Part shown: one piece after another, positions 12,454 through 40,669 of the stretch | Layout: each line of letters begins with the position of its first letter | How positions within the stretch are numbered: the stretch's first letter is position 1 | IMG/VR virus record: IMGVR_UViG_3300042542_003555 | Coordinates: 62,001-126,000 of that record | Strand: one strand, 5' to 3' | Source of the DNA: a virus | Length of the DNA: 64,000 nucleotides | Notes under the pieces: model-generated | Databases searched by the model: none | Told to the model about the DNA's origin: nothing | Seen by the model: the letters and a program-made list of their open reading frames with translations, nothing else | Program-made: the position numbers and the translations under genes

Positions 12454-12512
12454 GGTGTATGTCGCCGGTGGTCAGACCGCACATACTCTAACATTGAAAA
12501 GGAATGTCAGCT

Positions 12513-13061
12513 ATGATTATATATTCAATCTACAAATGTGTCAATAAAATAAACGGCAAAGTTTACATTGGGTTTGATTCCAATTGGCCTAAAAGAAAAA
12601 CCTCACATAACTACATATCATCTTCAAATAAATCAAAACATTCAAGTTTCCACCAAGCCATTAGAAAATACGGATGGAATAATTTTGAATGGGAAATTTT
12701 ATATCAATCGAAAGATAGAAACCACACATTAAAAATTATGGAACCATATTTCATACAAGAATACAACTCATATAAATGTGGATACAATAGAACTAAAGGT
12801 GGTGAAGGAACTTTTGGTAAAACTCAATCTATCAAAAATAAAAAAAATCTATCGGAAAGACAAAAAATTAAAAATAAAGAAAGTAGATGGTATAATAACG
12901 GAACAAAAAATACATTTTCAACCATTCATCCTGGTGAAGGTTGGGTTTTTGGAAGACTCAATCAAAAACCAACAACAAAAGGAAGAAAGTGGTATAATAA
13001 TGGAACAAAACAAATATTATCAGAAACTCAACCAGAAGGTTGGATATTAGGCATGTTGTGA
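12513..13061 (+). CDS. GIY-YIG homing endonuclease
   Basis: 182 residues from the ATG at 12513, which has AAGGA nine bases upstream (an ATG at 12504 is too close to that site). The opening IYSIYKCVNKINGKVYIGF is the GIY-YIG signature, followed by R-x-x-x-H and a H-x-x-x-F/I-x-K-YG block and EPYFIQEYNSY (catalytic Glu region). The C-terminus holds two copies of a W-Y-N-N-G-T-K...EGW-x-x-G repeat, probably DNA-binding. It is the only plus-strand gene in this block and overlaps the gp59 3' end by 15 bases: a free-standing homing gene inserted between gp59 and the HAD gene. Confidence 0.82.
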   Translation: MIIYSIYKCVNKINGKVYIGFDSNWPKRKTSHNYISSSNKSKHSSFHQAIRKYGWNNFEWEILYQSKDRNHTLKIMEPYFIQEYNSYKCGYNRTKGGEGTFGKTQSIKNKKNLSERQKIKNKESRWYNNGTKNTFSTIHPGEGWVFGRLNQKPTTKGRKWYNNGTKQILSETQPEGWILGML

Positions 13062-14821: not shown

Positions 14822-14829
14822 TATTTATA
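14822..14829 (-). promoter_or_regulatory. Late-promoter-like box TATAAATA
   Basis: Exact TATAAATA reading leftward, overlapping the last codons of the rubrerythrin gene and 86 bases upstream of the gene starting at 14736. It would separate late expression of that gene from the pqqA-rubrerythrin unit. Confidence 0.45.
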
Positions 14830-15259
14830 GTTGTCCTGCTTTGTAAGCATCAAGAGTTTTCTTGAACTTACCTGCATGAGAACGTTCTGCTTTCGCTAAT
14901 GTTTCAAACCAATCTGCAATTTCATCAAAGCCTTCTTCACGGGCTGTCTTAGCCATACCTGGATACATATCGGTGTATTCGTGAGTCTCACCTTCAATGG
15001 CAGATTCAAGTGCCTCTGCAACATTACTTACTTGCATACCTGTTGCAGGATCGCCAGCGGAACCATTCAACAAATATTCCATATGACCGTGTGCATGTCC
15101 AGTTTCACCTTCTGCTGTGTGACGAAATACCGCAGCAACTTCTGGTGAACCTTCAATGTCAGCCATGTTTGCAAAATATAGATAACGGCGATTTGCTTGT
15201 GATTCACCTGCAAATGCTTCTTTCAAATTCAATTCAGTTTTAGTTCCTTTGACGCTCAT
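14825..15259 (-). CDS. Rubrerythrin, ferritin-like diiron domain only
   Basis: 144 residues. All diiron ligands of rubrerythrin are present: E19 (in [12 protein letters not shown]), E52-x-x-H55, E91/E94 and E125-x-x-H128. The C-terminal rubredoxin domain of classical rubrerythrins (two C-x-x-C pairs) is absent, so it is a 'short' sulerythrin-like form. Family members reduce peroxide or protect against oxidative stress. The gene starts 12 bases after the pqqA stop and uses the same unusual ribosome site TAGGAGAC, so the two are almost certainly one operon from the promoter at 15393-15422. In a phage this is auxiliary metabolic cargo. Confidence 0.9.
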
Positions 15260-15271
15260 AGTGTCTCCTAA

Positions 15272-15346
15272 TTAACGATTCGCAATATACATTGTGATTT
15301 CAAAACCAAAACGCATATCGTTTGCTTGTGGTGTCATCCAGGTCAT
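15272..15346 (-). CDS. pqqA: PQQ precursor peptide PqqA
   Basis: A 24-codon gene read directly from the minus strand, ATG at 15346 and TAA at 15272-15274. The peptide begins MTWMTPQANDMRFG and ends FEITMYIANR. It has the PqqA pattern: an N-terminal W near residue 3, P6, R12-x-G14-F15-E16-x-x-x-Y20 and the closing NR. E16 and Y20 are the two residues that the radical SAM enzyme PqqE cross-links to make pyrroloquinoline quinone. TAGGAGAC lies 5 bases before the ATG, and a consensus promoter lies 47 bases upstream. No other pqq gene is in the window, so host PqqB-E would be needed. Length (24) equals typical PqqA (23-29). Confidence 0.9.
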   Translation of the reverse strand: MTWMTPQANDMRFGFEITMYIANR

Positions 15347-15370
15347 AGTAGTCTCCTAAAATTAAAAGTC

Positions 15371-15385
15371 GTAGCAACATGCTAC
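15371..15385 (-). promoter_or_regulatory. Leader hairpin upstream of pqqA
   Basis: GTAGC-AACAT-GCTAC, a perfect 5-bp stem with 5-base loop, lies at the 5' end of the predicted pqqA leader, just after the promoter -10 box. It may stabilise the short mRNA; no riboswitch is claimed. Confidence 0.45.
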
Positions 15386-15392
15386 AACTGAA

Positions 15393-15422
15393 ATTATATA
15401 TCGACTTGATGGGATTTGTCAA
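15393..15422 (-). promoter_or_regulatory. Consensus sigma70 promoter for pqqA-rubrerythrin
   Basis: Reading leftward: TTGACA (15422-15417), 18-base spacer, TATAAT (15398-15393); both hexamers are perfect consensus. The start point would lie about 40 bases upstream of the pqqA ATG. Confidence 0.8.
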
Positions 15423-15444
15423 GTAGTGAAAATCATGATTATAA

Positions 15445-15835
15445 GCTAGTTGATTCTGTTGCCAAGTTCAACTAGCAAAACTCCGGTCAGTGTTTAAGCT
15501 GCCAGTGCGAACTTTTCATCGTTTGCATTTATGGATTTGCTTGATTTACGGTCATCGCCTACCGTGTTGTCCATATCCTTACTCATTGCCCTGTCGAAAC
15601 CAGGTCAGCCCCATCAGAAGCACATTAGGGTGTAGCAGCCCCACCAGGATCCCTACTGTAGTGGTTAATGTGCTTTTGGTGGAGCTGGGCGGAATCGAAC
15701 CGCCGTCCAGAACACCTTTCATTCTACTTCATACAACAATAAGGTACACACTATGTAGGATTCCCACCTACGTTACCGACCAGCGGTATCTTAGTTTATC
15801 CGTCGCCTTTGCCACTTCTAGATGAATAGTGTGTA
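15445..15835 (-). ncRNA. ssrA: Permuted two-piece tmRNA (tag ANDEKFALAA)
   Basis: On the minus strand the acceptor part comes first. It ends in a T-arm (GGCGG-TTCGATT-CCGCC) and CAGCTCCACCA with CCA at 15679-15677. Next is a 64-base spacer, whose ends form a perfect 10-bp stem (15618-15627 with 15666-15675). The coding part then starts GGGGCTGACCTGGTTTCGACAGG at 15612 (split here as GGGGCTG, which pairs with CAGCTCC: 7 bp, one G-U). The tag reading frame 15526-15494 encodes ANDEKFALAA and a stop. A 10-bp inverted repeat (15745-15754 with 15826-15835) closes the acceptor piece, and a 9-bp stem (15445-15453 with 15468-15476) ends the coding piece. This order is the circularly permuted tmRNA type. 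Exact mature ends are inferred. Confidence 0.92.
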
Positions 15836-16334: not shown

Positions 16335-16997
16335 TCAATATTTATTCTGGTGATAATACTTAATAGCTTCTGCTAAACCGTTTAGATGATCTTCGGTTTT
16401 CTCTTTGAAGATAATTGGTGGTGAGTCTTTGACTGCCATAATAATAATAAGATTGTTAATTGGGGTGCCAATTAGTTCTTCATACATCAAAGAGTATGCA
16501 GTAGTTTGCCAAAAGTATTCAAGAATATCATCACGTTTCTTTGCTCTACTGGCAGTCTTAAAGTCAATGATAGATAGTTCACCTTCATATTCTGCTATAC
16601 AGTCTACTCTGCCAGCCATACCTATCGTTGTAGACCAAAGTGCTTGCTCTTGATAGTGTATGTTGTTTATATAGTTCAGATAAGGCTTGATTGAGAGGAA
16701 ATACTCAACAGCATCAGGCATGACACCTTTCATATAATCCTGTTTGTTGTTAAGATAAGCCTCGCAGATAGTGTGTACATTAGTGCCACGTGAGGTTGCT
16801 TGTTTGGAGATACGATTGGCTTCTTCTTCACCAACTCTTGCTCTCCATTCCATAATGGCTTTCTTTTTCTTGGCACCAACAACAGTAGTTACAGATGGTA
16901 GCTTAGTACCATCTGGCAACTTGTAATATCTTTTACCGTCAGGAAAAGTTTCTGATTGAAGGTCTTGTATTTCTTTAGGTGGGCAATAGTTAAACAT
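16335..16997 (-). CDS. PD-(D/E)XK exonuclease, RecB/Cas4-like
   Basis: 220 residues. Catalytic core of the RecB-nuclease type: ATSRGTNVHTICEAYL (His motif), then GRVDCIAEYEGELSIIDFKTA, in which D and the D-x-K pair bind metal, then a Q-x-x-A-Y block (WQTTAYSLMYEELIG). The N-terminus KLPSVTTVVG matches the phage Cas4-like exonucleases. There is no cluster of four cysteines, so it lacks the Cas4 iron-sulfur site. Probable role: host DNA breakdown or recombination. It shares a TAATG-type junction with the oxygenase gene upstream. Confidence 0.78.
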   Translation of the reverse strand: MFNYCPPKEIQDLQSETFPDGKRYYKLPDGTKLPSVTTVVGAKKKKAIMEWRARVGEEEANRISKQATSRGTNVHTICEAYLNNKQDYMKGVMPDAVEYFLSIKPYLNYINNIHYQEQALWSTTIGMAGRVDCIAEYEGELSIIDFKTASRAKKRDDILEYFWQTTAYSLMYEELIGTPINNLIIIMAVKDSPPIIFKEKTEDHLNGLAEAIKYYHQNKY

Positions 16998-17653
16998 TAT
17001 TTAAATCCAGGACCACCAACCCAAAGTACCAATGAACGACGAATACCTTTAGTGACTGGTGTAACACGATGTAATGTCCATGATGGGAAGAACCATGCAC
17101 GGCCTTTTTTCTGTTCTAAGTTTCTCACTTCATCATTACCTGTTTTAACATGTAATTCACCACCTTCAAATTCAGATGGGTCGCTTAGTAACAATGACAT
17201 GGACAACTTACGATATGGTGAGTTACCACCAGCAAGAGAGGTATCGGTGTGCCAATCATAGTGACCTTGATCATGCTGTGTGTAAGAACCAAGTTGTGCT
17301 AGTTCATAACAACCAGTCAAATCAAACTGAAAGAATTGTCTATTGGCAGACCAAACCGCATTGGTTATCTTTTGCCAAATATGGTCATTCTTACTATCAA
17401 CACCCATCCATGCAATGTTTGTTCGACGGAATTTTGGATTTACTTCTCCATTAGAACCATATCCTACTTGTGCTGCTGTCTGATCGTGCCATTCTGGTCG
17501 TGATAAAACATAATTAATGTCATCATCAGAAAGAAAACCTTCCCACCAGCACAAGTCATCTTTACCTGGTGCACTAAAAGGTGCAATTGGGTATACCAAC
17601 CCATGTAGAATTACATCACGTTTCACTTTTATCTCACTTTCTATACATGTCAA
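16997..17653 (-). CDS. 2-oxoglutarate/Fe(II) oxygenase, PKHD (PiuC-like) type
   Basis: 218 residues. Iron ligands H135-x-D137 (YDWHTDTS) and H195 (WTLHRVTPV), with R205/R206 for 2-oxoglutarate (GIRRSLVLWVGG). The EGGELHV strand and WFFPSW block are typical of prolyl-4-hydroxylase-like PKHD enzymes. These hydroxylate proteins or small molecules; the substrate here is unknown. First of four adjacent oxygenase genes (16997-19520). Confidence 0.85.
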   Translation of the reverse strand: MTCIESEIKVKRDVILHGLVYPIAPFSAPGKDDLCWWEGFLSDDDINYVLSRPEWHDQTAAQVGYGSNGEVNPKFRRTNIAWMGVDSKNDHIWQKITNAVWSANRQFFQFDLTGCYELAQLGSYTQHDQGHYDWHTDTSLAGGNSPYRKLSMSLLLSDPSEFEGGELHVKTGNDEVRNLEQKKGRAWFFPSWTLHRVTPVTKGIRRSLVLWVGGPGFK

Positions 17654-18227
17654 TCATACGGTTTCTAACAAATGGATGTTGTCTTTCCCATCTTTTATCA
17701 CCAGCGAATTCTGCAAAAGGTCCACTCGCACGAACAAAATGACAGAATACTTGTCCAGAATAATAATCTTCGGGACCATCACATGGTTTTCTCCAGTGCA
17801 ACAAATCACATCCTTTATACACAACACCATCACCTTCAGCTAAATCAAAACGATGTCCTGCCATATATATGGGCCACGAATAGTGATGAGAACGACCTAG
17901 TTGTATTGTAACAGATATCTCACATGAAGGTCTATCAGAATGTATCTTCAGTTCATCACCATTGCCATATAATCTAGCATAAGAATAGGTAGGAATGAGT
18001 TCTTCTTCAAGAGCATCTTCAAGTCTTGGCCATACTTGTTCTAGGATTGTTTCGCAGGCAAATTCACCATGACCCGCTGCTTTTGAATTTGGTATCTGTG
18101 GATCACCACCTACTCCAAATGCACCTTTAACTGAGAGTAGGTGGGTTAGAAACTTAGATACATCAGGACTGACGAGTCCTCTGAAGTGTAAGACACCTTT
18201 ACTATTAAAATATTCACGGGAACTCAT
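17634..18227 (-). CDS. 2-oxoglutarate/Fe(II) oxygenase
   Basis: 197 residues. H96-x-D98 (LKIHSDRPSCEISVTIQL) and H144 (DLLHWRKPC), a W-P-I strand and EGDGVVYKG. Architecture is that of P4Hc-like phage oxygenases, with H163 near the 2-oxoglutarate side; the usual Arg is less clear. Overlaps the next oxygenase by 20 bases. Confidence 0.78.
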   Translation of the reverse strand: MSSREYFNSKGVLHFRGLVSPDVSKFLTHLLSVKGAFGVGGDPQIPNSKAAGHGEFACETILEQVWPRLEDALEEELIPTYSYARLYGNGDELKIHSDRPSCEISVTIQLGRSHHYSWPIYMAGHRFDLAEGDGVVYKGCDLLHWRKPCDGPEDYYSGQVFCHFVRASGPFAEFAGDKRWERQHPFVRNRMIDMYRK

Positions 18228-18255
18228 AAAATTTCCTTTCTATTAATTATTTTTT

Positions 18256-18927
18256 TCATGATGTAACTCTACGAACTCGACCAACAGGAGAATTATTTAC
18301 AAATAATTTATTTACAAAGAAAACAAGCGTAAGTCTTGAATCTTGACCTTCGCCAAAGAAGTCTTGTGCTGCGTGATGTAGATGTGAGTCAAAAGCAATT
18401 AAGCGATTATATATGTTCGAAATACGTATCGTTTCTTCAAACTGCGAATTATGTTCTTTTTTATATTGCTTTGCGTTTTCAATACTCATCTTGTTTAGAT
18501 AACTATCTTCTTTATATTGAGTGTTTCGATGAGCATGTTGAAGCACATTTGCTTTCTGACGATAAATTGATGTGCCCCCATTTAAATTAGAATTTGGGGT
18601 GAGATAAATGATACCCGTTACTTGTGATGTTTCTTGATCTGAATGAATCCAACCAGAATCGTAACCTTCATGTACGATTTGAAAATTCATCGAAACATTC
18701 CATTCTATTTGTTCTTCACGAAGTTCATAAAACTGCGAAAAAAACTTTCTGCACGTTAGTTGAAAAAAAGAATCATCAAGTTCATGAATATAATTTGACC
18801 TTAATCCTGGCCAGCGCCCCTTAGAATCAGGTAAATATTCTTGTTGTAAAGCCCATCTGCGTACTTTATCTGGTTCATCGAAGAAATTATCTAGAACAGT
18901 AACAGGAATTGTTTGCATGTATTGCAT
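18256..18927 (-). CDS. 2-oxoglutarate/Fe(II) oxygenase (DUF6445-like)
   Basis: 223 residues. H95-x-D97 (GWIHSDQ), GIIYLTPN, GGTSIYR, then NRLIAFDSHLHHAA with the second His, and R198 in SRLTLVFFV. This is the pattern of a phage oxygenase family with a long insertion (residues 128-170). Substrate unknown. Confidence 0.75.
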   Translation of the reverse strand: MQYMQTIPVTVLDNFFDEPDKVRRWALQQEYLPDSKGRWPGLRSNYIHELDDSFFQLTCRKFFSQFYELREEQIEWNVSMNFQIVHEGYDSGWIHSDQETSQVTGIIYLTPNSNLNGGTSIYRQKANVLQHAHRNTQYKEDSYLNKMSIENAKQYKKEHNSQFEETIRISNIYNRLIAFDSHLHHAAQDFFGEGQDSRLTLVFFVNKLFVNNSPVGRVRRVTS

Positions 18928-18929
18928 AA

Positions 18930-19520
18930 TTATTTTTGTGTGAAATTAACGTCAAATGCGATTGAGATTCTATCTTGATCGGTCAAATTAGGTAAAACAT
19001 AATGTTTAATCCACGAGGGCATAATAATCAACTTACACGGTTCTGGTTTATAATAGACGTTTGACATCGAGCGTTCAATTGATGCTTCTTTAAACGGTTG
19101 TTCAGCGTAGTGATATGAGAATTGTTGAGAAGGATGTTCTAATACGAGATCGCCACAATTTTCATGTCCAGTCACATAGTATACACCAGAAAAGGTCCAA
19201 CCTCTATGGGTATGCGGATTATTTGTGTGACCTTTACCATTAATGTTTACCCAGCAATTATCGATGTTTAATTTTATATCATCTCTAAAATTAAAACCTT
19301 TATGAAGTGTTTCAAGCCGTTGATTGACATTATAAAACAATTCATTTAAAGCTGGAATATAACCAGTTAACTGTGTGCTATGCCATCCACCATAGTTTGA
19401 AAAATGTGATGTTTCACCTTGTTGTTGACGAAGATCGTAACAGAATTTTTTGATCGATTCGTTATCAATTTCAAGCATATCAACAGCAACGGTTGACACA
19501 AAAATATTTTCAACTAGCAT
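18930..19520 (-). CDS. 2OG-Fe(II) oxygenase, TIGR02466-like
   Basis: 196 residues. H103-x-H105 (NPHTHRGWTFSGVYYV) takes the place of H-x-D, followed by H173 (SWIKHYVLP) and R184. This H-x-H arrangement with W-x-F-S-G-V-Y-Y and G-D-L-V-L is that of the TIGR02466 putative oxygenases common in T4-like aquatic phages. Two bases separate it from the next gene. Confidence 0.75.
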   Translation of the reverse strand: MLVENIFVSTVAVDMLEIDNESIKKFCYDLRQQQGETSHFSNYGGWHSTQLTGYIPALNELFYNVNQRLETLHKGFNFRDDIKLNIDNCWVNINGKGHTNNPHTHRGWTFSGVYYVTGHENCGDLVLEHPSQQFSYHYAEQPFKEASIERSMSNVYYKPEPCKLIIMPSWIKHYVLPNLTDQDRISIAFDVNFTQK

Positions 19521-33153: not shown

Positions 33154-33182
33154 ATTATGGGGCATCCATGCCGAATTGTCAA
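33154..33182 (-). promoter_or_regulatory. Early promoter, repeated family
   Basis: TTGACA (33182-33177), 17-base spacer, CATAAT (33159-33154), followed leftward by GTATCCATATTGATTGAT. The downstream block is shared with the promoters at 35086, 36803, 37763, 38818, 39282, 40100 and 40374. Confidence 0.8.
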
Positions 33183-33313
33183 GGGCTATTTTTGTTGCAT
33201 TTTTGATAACATGCCTGCTGGACCGTCTAGGACCTAGTGGCTATGCGGTCCAACGGGAGGCTAGGAAGGGCTATAGGAGGTTTTCTGATAGTGGTCCATA
33301 TGGAGATATAGAC
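33183..33313. other. Untranslated segment with inverted repeat
   Basis: No supported ORF on either strand. Contains GGACCG...CGGTCC (about 33221 to 33252) around a nested TAGGACCTA, and GC content is above the surroundings. It lies between a promoter and a terminator that both point left, so it should be little transcribed. Confidence 0.5.
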
Positions 33314-33343
33314 CAAAAAAAGAGCCTCCTATGCGGAGGCTCT
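33314..33343 (-). terminator. Rho-independent terminator (leftward)
   Basis: AGAGCCTCC (33321-33329) pairs perfectly with GGAGGCTCT (33335-33343) over a 5-base loop; reading leftward a run of six or more T follows. Ends the transcript of the gene at 33375-33770. Confidence 0.85.
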
Positions 33344-33374
33344 GGAAATTATCAAAAAAACAATTGTTGGATTG

Positions 33375-33770
33375 TCAACCCCAGGTGCGGTGGCTTTCGG
33401 CAATATGCTCCATGCCATCATATTCTTTTATTACCCATGTAATATCATCGGGAATATCCACGATTTTCAATTCAGAATAATCACCATTGGCCGCTTTACC
33501 CATTTCCTTTACGGTCTGAATCAATGCGGGGTCATTCCTTTCCACATCATATAATGATAGGTACACCGAATTGATTTTTTTGTAGTCTCCTGTTTCCTCG
33601 GCTTCCTTTTCTAAGGCATCATATTCATCCTCAGGAACGGTTGAATATGACCAAAGGTGGTATTTGTCTTTGAAAGGATACACTTTGATGCCTTTCAATT
33701 CATAGTAACGCATCATGCCTTCATGCGATAGGTTGAAACCACCATAACAGGTATTGATTACTACTTTCAT
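33375..33770 (-). CDS. Conserved hypothetical phage protein
   Basis: 131 residues. KVVINTCYGGFNLSHEGMMR opening and acidic middle (EDEYDALEKEAEETGDY) and V-K-E-M-G-x-x-A-N-G are typical of a protein seen across many unrelated large phages. Function unknown; it carries no known catalytic motif. Followed by a strong terminator. Confidence 0.68.
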   Translation of the reverse strand: MKVVINTCYGGFNLSHEGMMRYYELKGIKVYPFKDKYHLWSYSTVPEDEYDALEKEAEETGDYKKINSVYLSLYDVERNDPALIQTVKEMGKAANGDYSELKIVDIPDDITWVIKEYDGMEHIAESHRTWG

Positions 33771-33778
33771 TTTTACTC

Positions 33779-34024
33779 CTATCCAAAAATAGCCTGATTC
33801 ATTTCATACACTTTTATTTCCTTGTCCGTGTATTCTACGGCATGCCACTCACCGTCAGGTGTCTGGGCACGGATAATATCAAAAGAATACACGGATCCCA
33901 TTTCAGTAAAAAAGCCTTCAACCTCTGCAAAGCGGGTTGTGGACTTTTTATTATCCATCATGGTTCCAAACCATCCATTACGGAGTTGGAAACGCATTCC
34001 TTTTTTAATTTCAGCGGTTTTCAT
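33779..34024 (-). CDS. Hypothetical small protein, OB/SH3-like
   Basis: 81 residues from the ATG at 34024 (GAGGAGG nine bases upstream): TAEIKKGMRFQLRNGWFGTM then short beta strands. Looks like a small beta-barrel. Overlaps the upstream gene by 14 bases. Confidence 0.6.
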   Translation of the reverse strand: MKTAEIKKGMRFQLRNGWFGTMMDNKKSTTRFAEVEGFFTEMGSVYSFDIIRAQTPDGEWHAVEYTDKEIKVYEMNQAIFG

Positions 34025-34187
34025 TTTGTTCCTCCTCAATATAATCAATTTGCCAATCTGGCTCAAAGGTGGTATCCAATCCGCCTCCTAATTTTTCTGC
34101 CATTCGTTCCGCTTCCTCTTCCGATTCGGCTTCAACAACCACAGAATCATACACTTTAGCAGAAAAATATACTCGGTATTCTTTCAT
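34011..34187 (-). CDS. Small acidic protein
   Basis: 58 residues from the ATG at 34187 (GGAGATT upstream). EYRVYFSAKVYDSVVVEAES then EEEAERMAEKLGG, a beta-strand plus acidic helix; resembles the DpnD/PcfM-like small domain seen in phages. Function unknown. Confidence 0.58.
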   Translation of the reverse strand: MKEYRVYFSAKVYDSVVVEAESEEEAERMAEKLGGGLDTTFEPDWQIDYIEEEQNENR

Positions 34188-34198
34188 ATAATCTCCTA

Positions 34199-35041
34199 TT
34201 AGCCACAGATAGTATACTCGGCAAGTGATTTCCAATTGCCGTTGGGGTTTGCTTTGCGAATCTTGGTCACTTGGATCAAGGTACGCAGGCTCAATTCCTT
34301 GACATTATCACGCAGGGAATCGATAAGGTTAAGGGCATCACGCTTCATGGCACGTGGGTACTCAGGCATGAATTCATCAGAATCAAGGATGAATTGCATA
34401 CGCTCGATTTTTTGTTGCGAGGTCATCGATAGGTCAACGGCCATTGATCGGGTGATGATGGCTTGGTCAATCTGATTGGATGACAGGTTGCTGATAAAAA
34501 TCACACGGCCTTTAAACTCAAAGGTCGTAGGCAGGTCATCATCACGGAGGTCGGCTCTCCATGAAATGATACGGCGAGAATAGGAATCCAATGCACCTTT
34601 GAGCAGGTTAAGGGATACAGGGTCTTTGAGGACAGAATCACAATCGTCAAAAACAATCACGCCGTTACGGTTTTCATATAGTGTACGGTACAGACCTTTA
34701 GGGGTCGAATAACCTTTGATAACACGGTATGAATTTTTGCTCAAGGTCTCGCCGACTTCAAAATCTTCGGTCAATGAAACATCGGTCAGGCCAGACTGGC
34801 GCAAGGCTTGGGTTACAGTAAAGGACTTGCCAAGACCGCCAGGACCAGTGACAATGACGGAAGCCTGATCGCCAAGTGATAACATGGTAACCATGTCAGA
34901 TACAAAGCCGAATCGCTCATTAATGGAAAAACGTGATTCCACAACAGGAGCAGGCTCTGAATTAAACTTGGTGACGGTAACGGGACCATTTACTTGGTTT
35001 TTAGTGCGGCGAAAGCCGGCTTTTGGGACGCCTCTTGGCAT
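34199..35041 (-). CDS. AAA+ ATPase, phage family
   Basis: 280 residues. Basic start (MPRGVPKAGFRRTKNQ), Walker A GPGGLGKS at 66-73, Walker B GVIVFDDCDS, sensor-1 N in VIFISNLSS. T-I-L-K-type lid at the C-terminus. Conserved in T4-like aquatic phages without a known partner. Residues 20-26, PVTVTKF, are repeated exactly near the end of the Lys/Ala-rich protein at 39766, hinting at a shared partner site. Confidence 0.75.
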   Translation of the reverse strand: MPRGVPKAGFRRTKNQVNGPVTVTKFNSEPAPVVESRFSINERFGFVSDMVTMLSLGDQASVIVTGPGGLGKSFTVTQALRQSGLTDVSLTEDFEVGETLSKNSYRVIKGYSTPKGLYRTLYENRNGVIVFDDCDSVLKDPVSLNLLKGALDSYSRRIISWRADLRDDDLPTTFEFKGRVIFISNLSSNQIDQAIITRSMAVDLSMTSQQKIERMQFILDSDEFMPEYPRAMKRDALNLIDSLRDNVKELSLRTLIQVTKIRKANPNGNWKSLAEYTICG

Positions 35042-35085
35042 AATAGCTCCTTATCAATAAACTACATTCATCACAATATGGATAC

Positions 35086-35114
35086 AGTATAGGGCTATTG
35101 GTGCAAATTGTCAA
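35086..35114 (-). promoter_or_regulatory. Early promoter, repeated family
   Basis: TTGACA (35114-35109), 17-base spacer, TATACT (35091-35086), then the shared GTATCCATATTG block. Drives the AAA ATPase at 34199-35041. Confidence 0.82.
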
Positions 35115-35119
35115 GGGTT

Positions 35120-35209
35120 TTATCCTCTTATTCCTATTAAAAATAAGAGAACCGTTGCTATAAATGCAACAATTCCTGAAGATAGCAGAATAGCAAGGTC
35201 CTCTTTCAT
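35120..35209 (-). CDS. Micro-protein, one membrane helix (candidate)
   Basis: 29 residues, acidic start then a hydrophobic helix (GIVAFIATVLLFLIGI). It starts 4 bases after the upstream stop; no strong ribosome site, so confidence is modest. Confidence 0.45.
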   Translation of the reverse strand: MKEDLAILLSSGIVAFIATVLLFLIGIRG

Positions 35210-35213
35210 GTTA

Positions 35214-35393
35214 TCAGGCTGTAAACGGTACTCTGCCCGCCATTGCAGGTTCAAAGGCAAAGTATAGATTCAGGATGGCTAAGGCTAGACTAGTGCCCCA
35301 TACCTTCCATCCGTTGCCGATTCTATAATCAACCAAAGCCATCATAGCCATGCCAAGTCCGGCAATCATACAAAAAACATTCATTGCACCCAT
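35214..35393 (-). CDS. Small membrane protein
   Basis: 59 residues from the ATG at 35393 with GGAG six bases upstream; two hydrophobic helices (MNVFCMIAGLGMAMMALV and GTSLALAILNLYFAFEPA). Coupled to the upstream stop. Confidence 0.55.
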   Translation of the reverse strand: MGAMNVFCMIAGLGMAMMALVDYRIGNGWKVWGTSLALAILNLYFAFEPAMAGRVPFTA

Positions 35394-35394
35394 G

Positions 35395-35577
35395 TTATAC
35401 TCCATTCCTATATTTTTCAAGTTTATAGTTCCAAAATTCTAAGGTGCTGGCTAATTGCATACCCGCAGCCTCAACCCCAATAAGCTTACCCTGGGGTGAC
35501 GGATTATTCATTACCGCTTCCAATCGGTGTATTAGGTCAATGATAGAATTATTCATTTCAATTTCCAACTCGGTCAT
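35395..35577 (-). CDS. Hypothetical helical protein
   Basis: 60 residues, acidic helix at the start (ELEIEMNNSIIDLIHRLEAV). Overlaps the upstream gene by 4 bases. Not recognised. Confidence 0.58.
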   Translation of the reverse strand: MTELEIEMNNSIIDLIHRLEAVMNNPSPQGKLIGVEAAGMQLASTLEFWNYKLEKYRNGV

Positions 35578-36017
35578 ACAGTTTCCTCCTTCAATACTTC
35601 ATTCAGGTTTTTAAATTCATGACCATAGGCAGATACTAGCCATTCGCCCTGGTCGTACAGGTAAAAATACTCTGCTCCTGTAGGATCATAGTATTCCACA
35701 AAGGCATCAAAATTTTCAAAGGTTTTGTATTCGGTGCCTTTTTCACCACGGTCACGACCATAATAAGTGGTCATTTCCTTATAATTTTGTTTTTCTATTT
35801 CATCAAGGTTATAGGTATCGAATGGGTGTTTCACACCAATTTCAGGACCCAGGCTTGATATATCGCCTAGACTGATTAAGGCTTTGATTGTTTCGGGGTC
35901 GGTGTAGTTTTCTGCTAGAATAGCACCATTGTGGGAAGGATAGCCATCCCAATGACAATAGACTGCCATGATATCACCATTTTCCAATTTGATGCCGATA
36001 GCGGAACGAGTAGCCAT
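35574..36017 (-). CDS. Conserved phage protein (MATRSAIG family)
   Basis: 147 residues. The opening ATRSAIGIKLENGDIMAVYC and YCHWDGYP block are shared by many large phages. The fold seems globular, beta-rich, with a late YYDPTGAEYFYLYDQGEW. Function unknown. Shares TAATG with the upstream 46-codon gene. Confidence 0.72.
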   Translation of the reverse strand: MATRSAIGIKLENGDIMAVYCHWDGYPSHNGAILAENYTDPETIKALISLGDISSLGPEIGVKHPFDTYNLDEIEKQNYKEMTTYYGRDRGEKGTEYKTFENFDAFVEYYDPTGAEYFYLYDQGEWLVSAYGHEFKNLNEVLKEETV

Positions 36018-36157
36018 TATTTTTTCTCCATAATAAATTTGATTATTTCCTTGGCGTCCTTCATTGAGGAAGTTTCCACTGCCGCTTCAATGTAGTCCCA
36101 ATAGGTTTCTTCGAGGTCATTCAGTAAATGATCCAATATTTGTCGTTTTCGGTTCAT
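36017..36157 (-). CDS. Small helical protein
   Basis: 46 residues, charged helices (NRKRQILDHLLNDLEETYW...). ATGA overlap with the gene upstream and TAATG with the one downstream, so it is translated in a chain. Not recognised. Confidence 0.6.
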   Translation of the reverse strand: MNRKRQILDHLLNDLEETYWDYIEAAVETSSMKDAKEIIKFIMEKK

Positions 36158-36324
36158 AGAATGTCCGAATTCAAAAGGTCAATCAGGTTGTCCCAAATTT
36201 TTTGTTTTTCAGAATCATTAGCGGTTGCCCATTGATTCCAAAATTCTGCCTGTGGACGGAAGCCAGTGGCATCCTTGTGGAGGTCAGATACCTCCAATTC
36301 CTTGAAGGTATATTGATTAGGCAT
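36154..36324 (-). CDS. Hypothetical protein
   Basis: 56 residues from the ATG at 36324, which lies over the end of the upstream gene; W-N-Q-W-A-T-A-N-D-S-E-K-Q-K-I-W helical middle. Not recognised. Confidence 0.55.
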   Translation of the reverse strand: MPNQYTFKELEVSDLHKDATGFRPQAEFWNQWATANDSEKQKIWDNLIDLLNSDIL

Positions 36325-36556
36325 TTTCACGGTCCATAACATAAGTAAAGATTACCCACTTGGCACGGTTCAATAATTGGCGCTGGGCTTCAATTGTATG
36401 AAAATCTGGTTGCTCATAAGCCATCATTTCCTGGGCATCGGATAACATGGATGCGGCTATCATTCCAGGACCAGATAATTTGAAGGTGATGCTAGATTCT
36501 ACACTTTCACGCAATTGGGCTTCGGTGCAGCCATACATGGAAATTTCCTGATTCAT
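36317..36556 (-). CDS. Conserved hypothetical protein
   Basis: 79 residues: L-R-E-S-V-E-S-S-I-T-F-K-L-S-G-P-G, then helices with paired Met. I recall similar small proteins in T4-like cyanophages (SGPxMxAxxxLSDAQE). Function unknown. Confidence 0.6.
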   Translation of the reverse strand: MNQEISMYGCTEAQLRESVESSITFKLSGPGMIAASMLSDAQEMMAYEQPDFHTIEAQRQLLNRAKWVIFTYVMDRENA

Positions 36557-36571
36557 TTTAATCTCCTAATC

Positions 36572-36772
36572 TCACAGGTTCATATAATCGGAGCCACCGA
36601 AGGCGTACTCCATGCGGGTAACGTACAGGTATTCCTCGGCTTCGGCTTCAGAATAAAAACTTTTGAGTTTGGTGCCTACACGGCCAGTGGCAGTGGGTGC
36701 CCATTCAACCACGCACCACTCAGGCAGGCGGTCGTCATCGCCATCATAAAAATCCACAGAGAATCGTTCCAT
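36572..36772 (-). CDS. Hypothetical small protein
   Basis: 66 residues from the ATG at 36772 (the upstream 14 codons are promoter DNA). F-S-V-D-F-Y-D-G-D-D-D opening and F-Y-S-E-A-E-A-E-E-Y-L helix. Possibly binds basic partners. First gene behind promoter 36803-36831. Confidence 0.58.
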   Translation of the reverse strand: MERFSVDFYDGDDDRLPEWCVVEWAPTATGRVGTKLKSFYSEAEAEEYLYVTRMEYAFGGSDYMNL

Positions 36773-36802
36773 TACAGTCTCCTTATCAATCAATATGGAT
36801 AC

Positions 36803-36831
36803 AGTATAGGGCACCTATGCCGAATTGTCAA
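36803..36831 (-). promoter_or_regulatory. Early promoter, repeated family
   Basis: TTGACA (36831-36826), 17-base spacer, TATACT (36808-36803), then the shared GTATCCATATTGATTGAT block. Confidence 0.85.
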
Positions 36832-36971
36832 GGGTTATTCAATTCCCATAGCCAATCTTCCAGATTGTCATATTGATAATCTGCCCATTCCCAAAAAGGT
36901 CTTAATAATAGCAGAGGCAATAGCATTGTCAATCTGACAACCCAGGTTAGTACCCACTTACACACTTTCAC
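36828..36971 (-). CDS. Small membrane protein (GTG start, candidate)
   Basis: 47 residues from GTG at 36971, starting inside the end of the preceding gene; hydrophobic helix (WVVRLTMLLPLLLL) then a Trp/Asp-rich tail. Without a clear ribosome site, so its translation would depend on coupling. Confidence 0.42.
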   Translation of the reverse strand: MKVCKWVLTWVVRLTMLLPLLLLRPFWEWADYQYDNLEDWLWELNNP

Positions 36972-37179
36972 AATTGATAATATTAGCATTTGGAAAATAT
37001 TGTCTAAAAAACAATTCCGCATTAGTTTCATTATTGACACCATTCACCGTGACCTCATAAGGGGTCTCTAGGTCGTGGACCGTATAGGTGATGGTATACT
37101 TGCCTCGGCCTTCGGAGCCTCCTGTAGCCTTGATTTTAGGCTCCTTGGGCTTGTTTTTACTGCCCTTGGGTCTACCCAT
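36958..37179 (-). CDS. Small protein with AT-hook-like N-terminus
   Basis: 73 residues: MGRPKGSKNKPKEPKIK, an R-P-K-G-S-K AT-hook-like basic patch, then a beta-rich half. Could bind AT-rich DNA. Two bases separate it from the preceding gene in the chain. Confidence 0.62.
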   Translation of the reverse strand: MGRPKGSKNKPKEPKIKATGGSEGRGKYTITYTVHDLETPYEVTVNGVNNETNAELFFRQYFPNANIINCESV

Positions 37180-37180
37180 G

Positions 37181-37354
37181 CTATACTCCTAGGCTGGTAG
37201 GCAGGTCTGCCACGGTAAAGCGGCTAGCATACAGGTTCAGCCGTTGCCAGGCCCATAGGTCTGTTATCTTATTGAAAACAGGACCAAACAGGTAGCCTGA
37301 GGTTTCAATGCAGGTCTGCCAGCCGCCTGCTACATTCTTACATGTAATTTTCAT
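37181..37354 (-). CDS. Hypothetical protein
   Basis: 57 residues from the ATG at 37354 with AAGGAGA upstream. Two Cys (KITCKNVAGGWQTC) and an aromatic, beta-rich remainder. Starts by ATGA overlap with the 48-codon gene. Not recognised. Confidence 0.62.
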   Translation of the reverse strand: MKITCKNVAGGWQTCIETSGYLFGPVFNKITDLWAWQRLNLYASRFTVADLPTSLGV

Positions 37355-37497
37355 TTTTTCTCCTTGAATACTTTTTTCACTTCGGCAATGGATACTTGCA
37401 ATTCCATCGATATAAAATCCAGGGTATCGAATTCCTTGCCTTTAGGATCGCCTACTTGTTTGGCTAATTCCAAAACTTTTGTTTTAAAGGTTTTCAT
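37351..37497 (-). CDS. Small HTH-like protein
   Basis: 48 residues; K-V-L-E-L-A-K-Q-V-G-D-P, then F-D-T-L-D-F-I-S-M-E-L-Q-V-S-I-A-E-V-K, an HTH-like pattern. Coupled to both neighbours. Confidence 0.6.
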   Translation of the reverse strand: MKTFKTKVLELAKQVGDPKGKEFDTLDFISMELQVSIAEVKKVFKEKK

Positions 37498-37731
37498 TTA
37501 AAACTCCTCGCCATAATATCCATAATCCTCATCGGTGCCGTAGCCAGCTGAGGCCATAGCGGAATCAAAATCGCCGTCCATAGATTCATCATAAGCCTCG
37601 GCCATTTGATCCATCATTTCCTCAAAAATCAATTCTACGTCCCAAATGGACATGTTAAACTTTTCGGCAATTTGCGCCCAGGTCAGGTCACCAGCGGAAA
37701 TTTCATCTTGCACTTTTGATACGATATTCAT
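37498..37731 (-). CDS. Small HTH-like acidic protein
   Basis: 77 residues. DEISAGDLTWAQIAEKFNMS is a helix-turn-helix of the AsnC or sigma-like kind; the C-terminus is very acidic (DESMDGDFDS...). I recall similar HTH proteins in T4-like cyanophages. It may regulate transcription or act as a DNA mimic. Behind promoter 37763. Confidence 0.62.
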   Translation of the reverse strand: MNIVSKVQDEISAGDLTWAQIAEKFNMSIWDVELIFEEMMDQMAEAYDESMDGDFDSAMASAGYGTDEDYGYYGEEF

Positions 37732-37762
37732 TTGATATCTCCTTTGTTCACGTTATGGATAC

Positions 37763-37791
37763 AGTATAGGGTAAGTGGTGCGAATTGTCAA
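37763..37791 (-). promoter_or_regulatory. Early promoter, repeated family
   Basis: TTGACA (37791-37786), 17-base spacer, TATACT (37768-37763), then GTATCCATAAC: the shared block, shorter here. Confidence 0.83.
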
Positions 37792-37794
37792 GGG

Positions 37795-38001
37795 TTATTC
37801 CTCATCCTCATCCTGTGATTCTATAATACCTCGTTCTAGCATTTCCGACAACAATTCGGCGTCGGACAGGTCACGCCATCCCTTGACACCAAATTCTAGT
37901 ATATTTGACAAGTATTCAAAATCACGGTTGGCAATACATTCCGTTACGGTATTGATATCATCGGCCAGCAGGTCCTGAATGGCTTTTTCACGGTTAAACA
38001 T
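37795..38001 (-). CDS. Small acidic protein
   Basis: 68 residues, helical and acidic (C-terminus ESQDEDEE): KAIQDLLADDINTVTECIAN, then L-S-D-A-E-L-L-S-E-M. Its acidity suggests a DNA-mimic or protein-inhibitor role, which is inference. Confidence 0.6.
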   Translation of the reverse strand: MFNREKAIQDLLADDINTVTECIANRDFEYLSNILEFGVKGWRDLSDAELLSEMLERGIIESQDEDEE

Positions 38002-38029
38002 AATTTACCTTTCTTTGGTTAGTGGCCAC

Positions 38030-38779
38030 TTAGGCAGCCATCATCATAACAGTAGGATACTTGACAAAGCCGCTGGTATCTTTTTTTGCTTTGCCTTTTG
38101 CATACAGGCCAACAATAACACCTTTAGGATCAAGGAATCGCAGGTCGGAATCGTCACCATTGAATACAGGACGGCCATTGTAGAATTCAGGCATAGGCAT
38201 TGTTTTCTTGATACCAAACACCGTTGCTACATTGTAACCTTGCTCAATGGCTTTGGCCACGTCGGAATCGTTACCATCAGCGGCAGAGAATGTCAAGTGG
38301 TAGTTAGGAATATGCTTGATTTTACGACCTAGAATCTTGGTGTAATCATAGAATTGTACCTCAGGGAATGCAAAGAAAATATTGTCATATTGCACACCGT
38401 TACGGATAACAGAGTATTTTTCAAAGGCAAGGTCAGAGGTGCCGTTCAGGCGGAATACAGGAATCAGATTAAGCCTTGCGGATTGTTTAATTGCTTTTTC
38501 AATATCAGCAACCAGCCACTCCATGAAACCTGCTCGTTCCTCAAAGAAAAATTGGGTCTTGCGGATTCTTGCTTTTTGGATAACGTTAGTGGTCTCGCCT
38601 TTTTTAAACATGCCGCCACGTCCTGCGGTATTGAGGCAGGCTTCCGCACAACCAGGAGTGGCTTTAGGGCAGGTCTGATAGCCGCTGAGGTTAGCAGGTG
38701 CGAGGTGCAGGATATAGGTGTTATAGCCTTGCTTAGTGCCTTTGAGAATCTTAGGATTACCTGTGGATAGCAATTTCAT
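38030..38779 (-). CDS. GP88-family protein
   Basis: 249 residues. KLLSTGNPKILKGTKQGYNT, LHLAPANLSGYQTC, then C37, C44, C48 (CPKATPGCAEAC) and LNTAGRGGMFKKGE, RKTQFFFEERAGF and F-R-L-N-G-T-S-D are the signature of the phage GP88 domain family. Three Cys could bind a metal or iron-sulfur cluster. Function unknown despite wide spread. Single gene behind its own early promoter. Confidence 0.82.
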   Translation of the reverse strand: MKLLSTGNPKILKGTKQGYNTYILHLAPANLSGYQTCPKATPGCAEACLNTAGRGGMFKKGETTNVIQKARIRKTQFFFEERAGFMEWLVADIEKAIKQSARLNLIPVFRLNGTSDLAFEKYSVIRNGVQYDNIFFAFPEVQFYDYTKILGRKIKHIPNYHLTFSAADGNDSDVAKAIEQGYNVATVFGIKKTMPMPEFYNGRPVFNGDDSDLRFLDPKGVIVGLYAKGKAKKDTSGFVKYPTVMMMAA

Positions 38780-38817
38780 AATTTTTCCTTTTTCTTATAA
38801 TCAATCAATATGGATAC

Positions 38818-38846
38818 AGTATAGTGGCATCCATGCCAATTGTCAA
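38818..38846 (-). promoter_or_regulatory. Early promoter, repeated family
   Basis: TTGACA (38846-38841), 17-base spacer, TATACT (38823-38818), then GTATCCATATTGATTGAT. Drives the GP88 gene. Confidence 0.84.
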
Positions 38847-38865
38847 TAGGCCAGCAAGGAATATT

Positions 38866-39045
38866 TCAATCCCCAAAGGTGTATGATAATTGATAACCTT
38901 CTGCCTCATACTGATCCCCAATGGAGATTAGCATTTCCGTAATAACCGCATCGGTAGCGGAAGGATGCTTTTCTTGCAACACCGCTGTGGAGGTTATCAT
39001 AAAATCACCATTATCCTTACGGGCACACAAATTAATAAAAAACAT
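38866..39045 (-). CDS. Hypothetical small protein
   Basis: 59 residues from ATG at 39045 with GAGGAA upstream. HPSATDAVITEMLISIGDQY helix; a mixed alpha/beta remainder. Not recognised. Confidence 0.6.
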   Translation of the reverse strand: MFFINLCARKDNGDFMITSTAVLQEKHPSATDAVITEMLISIGDQYEAEGYQLSYTFGD

Positions 39046-39059
39046 ATAATTCCTCTCAA

Positions 39060-39251
39060 TTAACCTATTGATAAAATTTCAGATTGTTTCAAAATAACAC
39101 TATTCCTTACACCGCTATAGACTGTTATCGGTTTGATAAGGTCCACATAATAGATTAATTCATTCCTACGCATACGGTATTCACGGATTGTACCTTTGAC
39201 AAGATATTCATTTAGATAATTTCCAGTAATTGTCATTCCGTTAAGGTTCAT
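39060..39251 (-). CDS. Hypothetical small protein
   Basis: 63 residues from the ATG at 39251 (GGAGATT upstream). Beta-rich: MTITGNYLNEYLVKGTIREY..., basic middle (RMRRNE). Behind promoter 39282. Confidence 0.6.
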   Translation of the reverse strand: MNLNGMTITGNYLNEYLVKGTIREYRMRRNELIYYVDLIKPITVYSGVRNSVILKQSEILSIG

Positions 39252-39281
39252 ATAATCTCCGTTCAATCAATCAATGGATAC

Positions 39282-39310
39282 AGTATAGAGGAAAGTGGCT
39301 GAATTGTCAA
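39282..39310 (-). promoter_or_regulatory. Early promoter, repeated family
   Basis: TTGACA (39310-39305), 17-base spacer, TATACT (39287-39282), then GTATCCATTGATTGAT. Confidence 0.83.
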
Positions 39311-39670
39311 TAGTCTATAGTGGATCCGCAGAAAATACTGTTATCCAAAAGATAACCGCAGAATATATCAGAGGAATACTATGACCCAGTGGTTCCTGAT
39401 AGATTTTGGCTATTGGTGCGCTTAGTAGGTCGCTGGTGCCTCTGGGTATTGGGTCTTTATGCGAGCCACCGAGTAATCCTTTCAGATTGGACAGGCTGAG
39501 AGGGTCGGAGAGAGGTTATTTAAGGGTCTCTGATCCATCCATAGTAGCCTGAAAATACCCTCGGAGAACCCTTAAGGGCACGGAGGTTGTTATACGGACA
39601 ATCAATTGCAATAATGATAACATCTAGTGCAGGAGTGGATTAGGATACCAGATTTTGCTGCATCTCCAAT
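39311..39670 (-). other. ORF-less, promoter-led segment: candidate phage ncRNA
   Basis: About 360 bases with no supported protein gene on either strand, GC-richer than most of the window, lying just downstream of a good promoter (39677-39705) that points into it. It contains complementary stretches around CCCTTAAGGG (near 39570) and GGGTCTCTGATCC. The transcript would run into the next promoter and gene at 39251. It may be a non-coding RNA or a long leader. The only short ORFs are 7 and 14 codons. Confidence 0.4.
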
Positions 39671-39676
39671 AGTGTA

Positions 39677-39705
39677 ATATTACAGTGGACTGGCTGAATT
39701 GTCAA
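39677..39705 (-). promoter_or_regulatory. Early promoter (variant -10)
   Basis: TTGACA (39705-39700), 17-base spacer, TAATAT (39682-39677). Same upstream half as the repeated family (CCTTGACAATTCAGCC) but without the shared GTATCCAT block. Confidence 0.75.
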
Positions 39706-39714
39706 GGCTTATAC

Positions 39715-39747
39715 CAAAAAAATCCTCTAGTTTTTATACTAGAGGAT
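39715..39747 (-). terminator. Rho-independent terminator (leftward)
   Basis: ATCCTCTAGT (39722-39731) pairs perfectly with ACTAGAGGAT (39738-39747), loop of six; reading leftward TTTTTTT follows. Ends the gene at 39766-40065. Confidence 0.88.
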
Positions 39748-39765
39748 CTTATCATATTACTAAGC

Positions 39766-40065
39766 TTAGGCTGTTGCAAACTTAGTAACGGTTACAGGGC
39801 TAGGCTTTTTGGCTGCCTTTTTTGCTTTGATGCCCACTTTGGGGGTTTCGAGGGCTAGGAGTTTCGCTTTGAGTTTTTCAATACGGGCAGCCTTTTTGGC
39901 TTCACGGTCTTGGGCTTTGAGTGCCTTCAGCATGGCTTTAGTGGCCTTCTGGGTTGCACGGAATTCCTTGTCGTCCTCTCGGGCAGCCTTGTACTGGGCA
40001 CGGAGGGACTTGAGGTTAGCGGCAGCGGAGGCAATATCAGCCTTCAGGAGTTGGAGCTTGGTCAT
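39766..40065 (-). CDS. Lys/Ala-rich coiled-coil protein
   Basis: 99 residues, almost a single basic helix (LRAQYKAAREDDKEFRATQK and so on) ending PSPVTVTKFATA. The composition is histone-like or that of a DNA-condensing protein. Residues 90-96 PVTVTKF repeat the N-terminal motif of the AAA ATPase at 34199. Own promoter and own terminator: a monocistronic early unit. Confidence 0.7.
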   Translation of the reverse strand: MTKLQLLKADIASAAANLKSLRAQYKAAREDDKEFRATQKATKAMLKALKAQDREAKKAARIEKLKAKLLALETPKVGIKAKKAAKKPSPVTVTKFATA

Positions 40066-40099
40066 GGTGTTTCCTTTCGTTTTTAATCAGTATGGATAC

Positions 40100-40128
40100 A
40101 GTATAGGGTACCTGGTGCGAATTGTCAA
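40100..40128 (-). promoter_or_regulatory. Early promoter, repeated family
   Basis: TTGACA (40128-40123), 17-base spacer, TATACT (40105-40100), then GTATCCATACTGAT. Drives the Lys/Ala-rich protein. Confidence 0.84.
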
Positions 40129-40146
40129 GGGTTTACCTCAGGACTA

Positions 40147-40341
40147 TTAGCAGTCCTCTACCTCAAAATCATCCATGAGGCTGTCGATATAGTCATTCAG
40201 ATAACAATTGTAGGCGATCGGATCGCATTCCTTGAGGATGGTCGAGCGGTTGAATTGTATACCTGCTACCTCGACGGTACCTTCACAATCCAAGGCATCC
40301 TCGAACATCTCCACAGCGGTGGCGTAGGATATTGATTCCAT
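40147..40341 (-). CDS. Small acidic protein
   Basis: 64 residues, acidic (DALDCEGTVEVAG, DSLMDDFEVEDC), three Cys. Own early promoter (40374). Acidity and early expression fit a host-takeover inhibitor, but that is inference. Confidence 0.62.
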   Translation of the reverse strand: MESISYATAVEMFEDALDCEGTVEVAGIQFNRSTILKECDPIAYNCYLNDYIDSLMDDFEVEDC

Positions 40342-40373
40342 TATTTTCTCCTTTAATTAATCACTATGGATAC

Positions 40374-40402
40374 AGTATAGCGGCATTCCTGCCAATTGTC
40401 AA
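40374..40402 (-). promoter_or_regulatory. Early promoter, repeated family
   Basis: TTGACA (40402-40397), 17-base spacer, TATACT (40379-40374), then GTATCCATAGTGATTAAT. Confidence 0.84.
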
Positions 40403-40405
40403 GGG

Positions 40406-40498: not shown

Positions 40499-40503
40499 GA
40501 TGT

Positions 40504-40635: not shown

Positions 40636-40669
40636 TTATATAACTCTCATTTATTGTTTCAGTCTGTAC

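What the first reader, a model, noticed from the sequence alone, without database searches (positions are those of the whole stretch)
15272..15346. Phage-encoded PqqA, the precursor peptide of the cofactor PQQ
A 24-codon gene on the minus strand encodes a peptide with the PqqA pattern: W3, R12-x-G-F-E16-x-x-x-Y20 and final NR. E16 and Y20 are the residues that are joined to form pyrroloquinoline quinone. It has a strong ribosome site (TAGGAGAC) and a perfect -35/-10 promoter, and it is too short for normal gene callers. PQQ is the cofactor of methanol dehydrogenases and some glucose dehydrogenases. The precursor peptide is consumed stoichiometrically, so a phage that only supplies PqqA could raise PQQ supply using host PqqB-E. 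That is an economical way for a phage to act on central metabolism.
Basis: partly seen in the sequence, partly recalled or inferred. Interest (0 to 1): 0.96.

Follow-up and report, generated by a model that had tools for sequence, protein, structure and literature searches.

The report
Phage-borne PQQ precursor under host operator

Summary
The 24-codon ORF at 15346..15272 (-) scores 35 bits against both PqqA models (cut-offs 20-21, E=1e-8), with W3, R12, G14, E16 and Y20 and a good ribosome site. It is not a one-off. E16 and Y20 are invariant even in a scan that did not ask for them. The phage lacks PqqD, radical-SAM enzymes and PQQ dehydrogenases; only 1 of the roughly 90 related viral records examined has a methanol dehydrogenase. 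Hosts (Methylophilaceae) themselves carry 1-12 scattered pqqA copies. New here: a palindromic operator, CT[AC]ATGATTTTCATTAG-like, lies upstream of most host and phage pqqA genes. In the window it abuts the -35 box and is the best match in 64 kb. pqqA also sits in a recurring tmRNA-pqqA-rubrerythrin neighbourhood. Phage PqqA as such was reported once before (Lake Baikal, 2020, with methanol dehydrogenase). The breadth, the stand-alone form and the shared operator are, as far as I could search, new. That PQQ rises during infection is inferred, not shown.

The parts
15272..15346 (-). pqqA, 24 codons, MTWMTPQANDMRFGFEITMYIANR
   Evidence: PF08042 35.4 bits, TIGR02107 35.0 bits; E16/Y20 invariant in viral relatives
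15353..15357 (-). Shine-Dalgarno AGGAG of pqqA
   Evidence: sequence; SD-like motif in 116 of 120 EITMYIANR-type viral copies
15423..15439 (-). putative operator ATCATGATTTTCACTAC, shared with host pqqA genes
   Evidence: 19.3 bits, best site in the whole window; same motif upstream of 83% of viral and 83% of Methylophilaceae pqqA, 4.4% of other genes
15393..15422 (-). promoter TTGACA-18-TATAAT, -35 abutting the operator
   Evidence: 12/12 consensus; in viral copies that have an operator and a -10, the -10 is mostly 20-25 nt after the operator
15367..15389 (-). hairpin at the expected 5' end of the pqqA mRNA (AGTTGTAGCATGTTGCTACGACT)
   Evidence: 97% of cells paired in 9 relatives with two pairs changed on both sides, shuffles 21/500
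14825..15259 (-). rubrerythrin-like di-iron protein, 12 nt downstream of pqqA
   Evidence: PF02915 E=4e-27; next to pqqA, in either order, in about ten viral loci
15403..15790 (-). permuted (two-piece) tmRNA, betaproteobacterial type, tag ANDEKFALAA (outer limits; 3' end uncertain)
   Evidence: ARAGORN 15403-15769; RF01850 153.9 bits, RF04321 156.3 bits
14464..14733 (-). 89-aa conserved phage protein of unknown function, next gene after rubrerythrin
   Evidence: homologues near pqqA in 38 viral loci, directly downstream in 22; no Pfam or PHROG match

Best explanation
The gene is a genuine phage-borne pqqA in a T4-like phage of Methylophilaceae-type methylotrophs. It makes the precursor peptide that host PqqD presents to host PqqE, which joins Glu16 to Tyr20; host PqqB, PqqC and a protease finish PQQ. 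PqqA is consumed one per PQQ molecule, and the hosts already multiply pqqA but keep one pqqBCDE, so adding a strongly expressed copy is a cheap way to sustain PQQ for the host methanol dehydrogenase (XoxF/MxaF) and hence energy during infection. The phage copy sits next to an operator shared with host pqqA genes, so it is probably switched on by the same host regulator, helped by a stronger -10. The neighbouring rubrerythrin may remove the peroxide that PQQ synthesis makes. Shown: the gene, family, conservation, distribution, missing partner enzymes, shared operator. Inferred: expression, processing by host enzymes, PQQ increase, benefit, role of rubrerythrin.
For: Profile scores. More than 200 viral contigs against 0 for the reversed pattern. 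Methylophilales phage isolates Melnitz (four strains), P19250A, MEP301, MEP401, MEP402 and Venkman. Mean pS 0.61 versus pN 0.12. E16/Y20 invariant where not required. No PqqD or radical SAM in the phage, PqqE over cut-off in 0 of 50 records, PQQ dehydrogenase in one of the records. Hosts carry multiple pqqA copies (PMC4109929). Operator shared by host and phage and also upstream of host pqqB. T4-like genes in the window. XoxF is the top transcript in an OM43 isolate (PMC5120137).
Against: No expression or PQQ data. It is unknown whether PqqA limits PQQ in these hosts: in Acetobacter pqqAB raised PQQ 29%, the whole operon eightfold (PMC7936290), so the enzymes may limit instead. The host of this contig is inferred. 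The virus record may be incomplete, so the absence of other pqq genes is not absolute. Isolates Venkman, MEP401 and MEP402 lack a clear operator.
Confidence: 0.76

Rival explanations
1. Phage PqqA is an inhibitor or decoy: a flood of peptide ties up PqqD/PqqE or SAM, or slows PQQ production, shutting down or re-timing host methanol oxidation.
For: The phage has the substrate without any enzyme, so an excess could titrate PqqD/E; phages often shut off host functions.
Against: E16 and Y20 are invariant in all 206 occurrences, including the 120 contigs of a scan that did not require them; a decoy would not need the cross-linked pair. One related virus pairs pqqA with its own methanol dehydrogenase, as does the Baikal phage, which points to promotion.
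Confidence: 0.09
2. The peptide feeds a phage-specific RiPP rather than PQQ, with a phage or host radical SAM enzyme making another product.
For: PqqA is a RiPP-type precursor; a few related viruses have other radical SAM proteins below the PqqE cut-off.
Against: This phage has no radical SAM or PqqD/RRE-type protein, and the peptide keeps the whole PqqA motif.
Confidence: 0.03
3. Passive capture: pqqA is a short host fragment carried along near recombination-prone RNA genes (tmRNA, tRNAs), with little benefit.
For: The gene often lies beside tmRNA or tRNA genes, typical capture sites; hosts have many scattered copies.
Against: Low pN/pS, SD in 116/120 copies, operator kept while its flanks diverge, over 90 different neighbour families on each side, and an EITMYIANR-type peptide hardly found in the host genomes sampled: all point to selection for function.
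Confidence: 0.05
4. The operator is ancestral baggage or a site for an unrelated regulator, and phage pqqA is driven only by its strong sigma-70 promoter (compatible with precursor supply).
For: The phage -10 and -35 are near-perfect without help; some phage isolates lack the operator.
Against: The operator is the most conserved upstream element and is phased with the -10 box in most viral copies where both were found.
Confidence: 0.25

Closest known systems
Bacterial PqqA (PF08042 / TIGR02107), Methylophilaceae type MWT[TK]PAATEMRFGFEVTMYVMNK
   Same: length, W3, P6, R12, G14-F-E16-x-T18-x-Y20, C-terminal N-[KR]; orphan copies with their own SD; shared upstream operator
   Different: the window type ends EITMYIANR; best host match in 187 Methylophilaceae genomes is 65-67% identical; EITMYIANR found in 1 of 369 genomes of the class sampled
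PqqA plus methanol dehydrogenase in Lake Baikal Methylophilaceae phages VP_266/VP_139 (PMC7678222)
   Same: T4-like phages of Methylophilaceae, pqqA as auxiliary metabolic gene
   Different: that virus also encodes methanol dehydrogenase; the window phage and most relatives carry pqqA alone; no operator, tmRNA or rubrerythrin link was described in the passages read
Methylophilales phages Melnitz, Venkman, MEP301, MEP401, MEP402 and P19250A
   Same: carry the pqqA ORF with SD; Melnitz also has a two-piece tmRNA
   Different: pqqA is unannotated or overwritten by an opposite-strand ORF; the Melnitz paper mentions PQQ only as a medium ingredient and a later OM43 phage paper not at all
Auxiliary metabolic genes such as cyanophage psbA/D1 (from general knowledge)
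   Different: here the component is a 24-residue precursor consumed to make a cofactor, not an enzyme or structural subunit

Membership tests
PqqA (PF08042 / TIGR02107) | profile score above the curated cut-off | tested here: met
   35.4 vs 21.1 and 35.0 vs 20 bits
PqqA (PF08042 / TIGR02107) | Glu16 and Tyr20, cross-linked by PqqE | tested here: met
   present; invariant in viral relatives; residue roles in PMC10906245
PqqA (PF08042 / TIGR02107) | short ORF of about 22-24 codons with ribosome site | tested here: met
PqqA (PF08042 / TIGR02107) | adjacent pqqBCDE operon (common, not required) | tested here: not met
   no PqqD or radical SAM in the 161-kb record. Not required: host orphan copies are normal (PMC4109929)
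PqqA (PF08042 / TIGR02107) | bound by PqqD, cross-linked by PqqE, converted to PQQ | not testable with these tools
   needs biochemistry
Phage auxiliary metabolic gene | host-type metabolic gene inside a phage genome with phage genes on both sides | tested here: met
   T4-like gp59, gp33-type coactivator, gp32; baseplate, RNR, PhoH
Phage auxiliary metabolic gene | expressed in infection and alters host metabolism | not testable with these tools
   no transcriptomes or infection data
Shared host/phage pqq operator | motif learned on viral pqqA also found upstream of host pqqA, not of other genes | tested here: met
   83% of 72 host sites vs 4.4% of 297 other host genes; also upstream of pqqB
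Shared host/phage pqq operator | bound by a host regulator | not testable with these tools
   regulator not identified

The most novel reading that the evidence does not exclude
Phages of Methylophilaceae have repeatedly taken up pqqA with, or placed it under, the host's PQQ operator. An unknown host regulator that senses methylotrophic or redox state would then drive a phage-supplied, consumable cofactor precursor, while a linked rubrerythrin deals with the peroxide by-product. This would be a widespread 'precursor-feeding' class of phage metabolic genes that gene callers have missed, plus a previously undescribed host PQQ regulon.
Probability: 0.5. Interest if true: 0.85.

Novelty: new variant of a known kind. 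Interest (0 to 1): 0.74.

Why it matters
Methanol oxidation by Methylophilaceae (OM43, LD28/Methylopumilus) is a major one-carbon sink in coastal sea and lakes, and its key enzyme depends on PQQ. If hundreds of phages raise PQQ by adding only a 24-residue precursor, viruses act on this flux through a gene that annotation pipelines miss. The shared operator gives a direct handle on how hosts regulate PQQ, and the isolates Melnitz, MEP301 and P19250A make the idea testable in culture.

Tried and rejected
A first viral-contig pattern scan had a spacing error and found nothing; it was repeated correctly. The search for related loci refuses a 24-aa query. PDB sequence search: no hit. PHROGs has no PqqA family match. 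'Acinetobacter phage MD-2021a' as a phage homologue was rejected: it is bacterial DNA with polyphosphate kinase and a complete pqq operon. Rhodococcus phage ReqiDocB7 was rejected (E=5). The idea that the operator is only the 3' end of the tmRNA was rejected: it is also upstream of pqqA in hosts and in phages without a nearby tmRNA, and the Rfam alignment is poor there. The hairpin as a plain terminator is possible but unsettled. The first automatic start choice for MTWMTP-type peptides began at the second Met and was corrected. Single-linkage context clustering merged most loci through common phage domains, so immediate-neighbour families were counted instead.

Full report
Observation. The minus-strand ORF 15346..15272 encodes MTWMTPQANDMRFGFEITMYIANR, has AGGAG a few bases upstream of its ATG, and is preceded by a 12/12 sigma-70 match, TTGACA-18-TATAAT, at 15422..15393. 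It passes both curated PqqA models: Pfam PF08042 35.4 bits (cut-off 21.1) and NCBIfam TIGR02107 35.0 bits (cut-off 20). The peptide pattern is unique in the window and absent from 100 shuffles.

Setting. The window is bases 62001-126000 of a 160,983-base virus record. It is T4-like: gp32, gp59, the late-transcription coactivator, T4 baseplate, RNR, PhoH and Thy1 proteins are present. On the same strand the order is permuted tmRNA (15769..15403, tag ANDEKFALAA; RF01850 beta_tmRNA 153.9 bits), operator, promoter, hairpin, pqqA, 12-nt gap, rubrerythrin, a conserved 89-aa protein, a cell wall hydrolase, the coactivator and gp59. The record has no PQQ dehydrogenase (TIGR03075, PF13360), no radical SAM protein (PF04055) and no PqqD (PF05402). 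It may be incomplete.

Distribution. tblastn against 50,697 phage records finds the peptide in Methylophilales phages Melnitz (4 strains), P19250A, MEP301, MEP401, MEP402 and Venkman. No annotated gene covers it, or an opposite-strand 'hypothetical protein' does. A second scan for the window's EITMYIANR type also stopped at the limit, with contigs up to 364 kb. The same pattern read as a reversed peptide gave 0. In all I worked with 231 viral loci, including the window's own.

Selection. This pN is helped by residues fixed in the search pattern. The pair that PqqE joins (PMC10906245) is therefore required, which argues against a decoy.

Hosts. The general pattern in bacterial genomes returns almost only methylotrophs (the codon choices in that pattern favoured AT-rich genomes), and Methylophilaceae PqqA reads MWT[TK]PAATEMRFGFEVTMYVMNK. 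Of 187 Methylophilaceae genomes, 185 have PqqA, usually several copies; in 26 methylotroph genomes looked at in detail there are 1-12. The literature agrees: 3-12 pqqA copies but one pqqBCDE set (PMC4109929). So these hosts already raise the dose of the consumable precursor, and the phage adds another copy. The window peptide is at most 65-67% identical to any host copy listed in that family, and EITMYIANR occurs in 1 of 369 genomes of the class. The window type is thus largely a phage lineage of its own.

Substrate without enzymes. Among 50 viral records with pqqA, none has PqqE above its cut-off and one has a PQQ dehydrogenase domain. In 44 records, mostly others, the same single record has a full methanol dehydrogenase. 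PqqD is absent from all 36 records tested. Supplying the precursor alone is the rule.

Shared operator. Comparing upstream regions showed a palindromic motif close to CT[AC]ATGATTTTCATTAG. A weight matrix trained on viral sites, tested on host sequence, finds it upstream of 83% of 72 Methylophilaceae pqqA genes, against 4.4% of 297 other genes in the same loci and about 2% of shuffles. It is upstream of 83% of 208 viral pqqA genes, against 4.4% of 1352 other viral genes. The viral figure is partly fitted; the host figure is not. Methylococcaceae pqqA genes lack it (6%). A matrix built from host sites only still picks out 36% of viral pqqA genes versus 1.6% of other viral genes. The motif is conserved while its flanks are not. 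In viruses the -10 box, where one was found (100 of 169 operator-bearing sites), mostly lies 20-25 nt after the motif; in hosts no -10 is usually recognisable there (54 of 59). In the window the motif (15439..15423) abuts the -35 and is the best match in 64 kb (19.3 bits; next 15.6). That geometry is what an activator contacting RNA polymerase would need, but the regulator is unknown. In ten host genomes, ten of 23 near-perfect matches lie upstream of pqqA, one upstream of pqqB (TIGR02108 383 bits) and three upstream of a glycine-zipper envelope protein. I found no paper that describes this operator, but much of the methylotrophy literature is not in the library.

Neighbourhood. A tmRNA lies within about 1.2 kb of pqqA in roughly 35 of 120 EITMYIANR-type loci, mostly directly upstream. 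Rubrerythrin lies within 3 kb in 20 loci and is next to pqqA in about ten, in both gene orders. Over 90 different gene families occur as immediate neighbours on each side, so the gene has entered phage genomes in many places. A possible reason for the rubrerythrin link is that the last step of PQQ synthesis (PqqC) releases hydrogen peroxide (general knowledge) and rubrerythrins reduce peroxide; this is inference. The hairpin at the expected mRNA start is conserved in close relatives with modest covariation (97% paired, two pairs changed on both sides, 21/500 shuffles); it may stabilise the mRNA or end tmRNA transcription.

Mechanism and limits. The most likely role is precursor supply: phage PqqA goes through host PqqD/E/B/C to PQQ and keeps methanol dehydrogenase, the top transcript in an OM43 isolate (PMC5120137), loaded during infection. 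Against a simple reading, raising pqqAB alone in Acetobacter gave only 29% more PQQ and the whole operon eightfold (PMC7936290), so enzymes may limit. Expression, processing and benefit remain untested.

Known and new. Coutinho et al. 2020 (PMC7678222) reported PqqA with methanol dehydrogenase in a Methylophilaceae phage, so phage PqqA itself is known. The breadth, the stand-alone form, the presence in cultured phages, the shared operator and the tmRNA-pqqA-rubrerythrin neighbourhood were not found in the papers searched.

Noticed in passing
window 33182..40698 (-): About eight near-identical phage promoters, TTGACA-17-TATACT followed by GTATCCAT, drive small genes; the pqqA promoter does not share the GTATCCAT tail.
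   Followed up: no
window 15403..15790 (-): Permuted tmRNA of betaproteobacterial type, whereas the published Melnitz tmRNA groups with Alphaproteobacteria. Related phages show very varied tag peptides, some long or unusual.
   Followed up: partly
window 12504..13061 (+): Plus-strand ORF that by eye resembles a GIY-YIG homing endonuclease, inserted in a minus-strand block between gp32 and gp59.
   Followed up: no
window 16997..19520 (-): Run of 2OG-Fe(II) oxygenase-like genes (PF13640 in one; two other window proteins match PF13759).
   Followed up: no
L395, L409, L412: In three Methylophilaceae genomes the pqq-type operator lies upstream of a glycine-zipper envelope protein, hinting at a regulon beyond PQQ.
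   Followed up: partly
L006 (CAKLQF020000010.1): Deposited as Acinetobacter phage MD-2021a, but the stretch is bacterial: polyphosphate kinase and a complete pqqABCDE operon.
   Followed up: yes
L002 (Melnitz-1) 3967-4062: Annotated opposite-strand hypothetical protein QZI94433.1 overlies the real pqqA; probably a false gene call.
   Followed up: yes
L035 and L290: Jumbo viral contigs of 356 kb and 364 kb also carry pqqA.
   Followed up: no
L050 record (IMGVR 3300025120_009955, 72 kb): The only surveyed pqqA virus with a full methanol dehydrogenase (TIGR03075, 608 bits summed over its frame), resembling the Lake Baikal case.
   Followed up: partly
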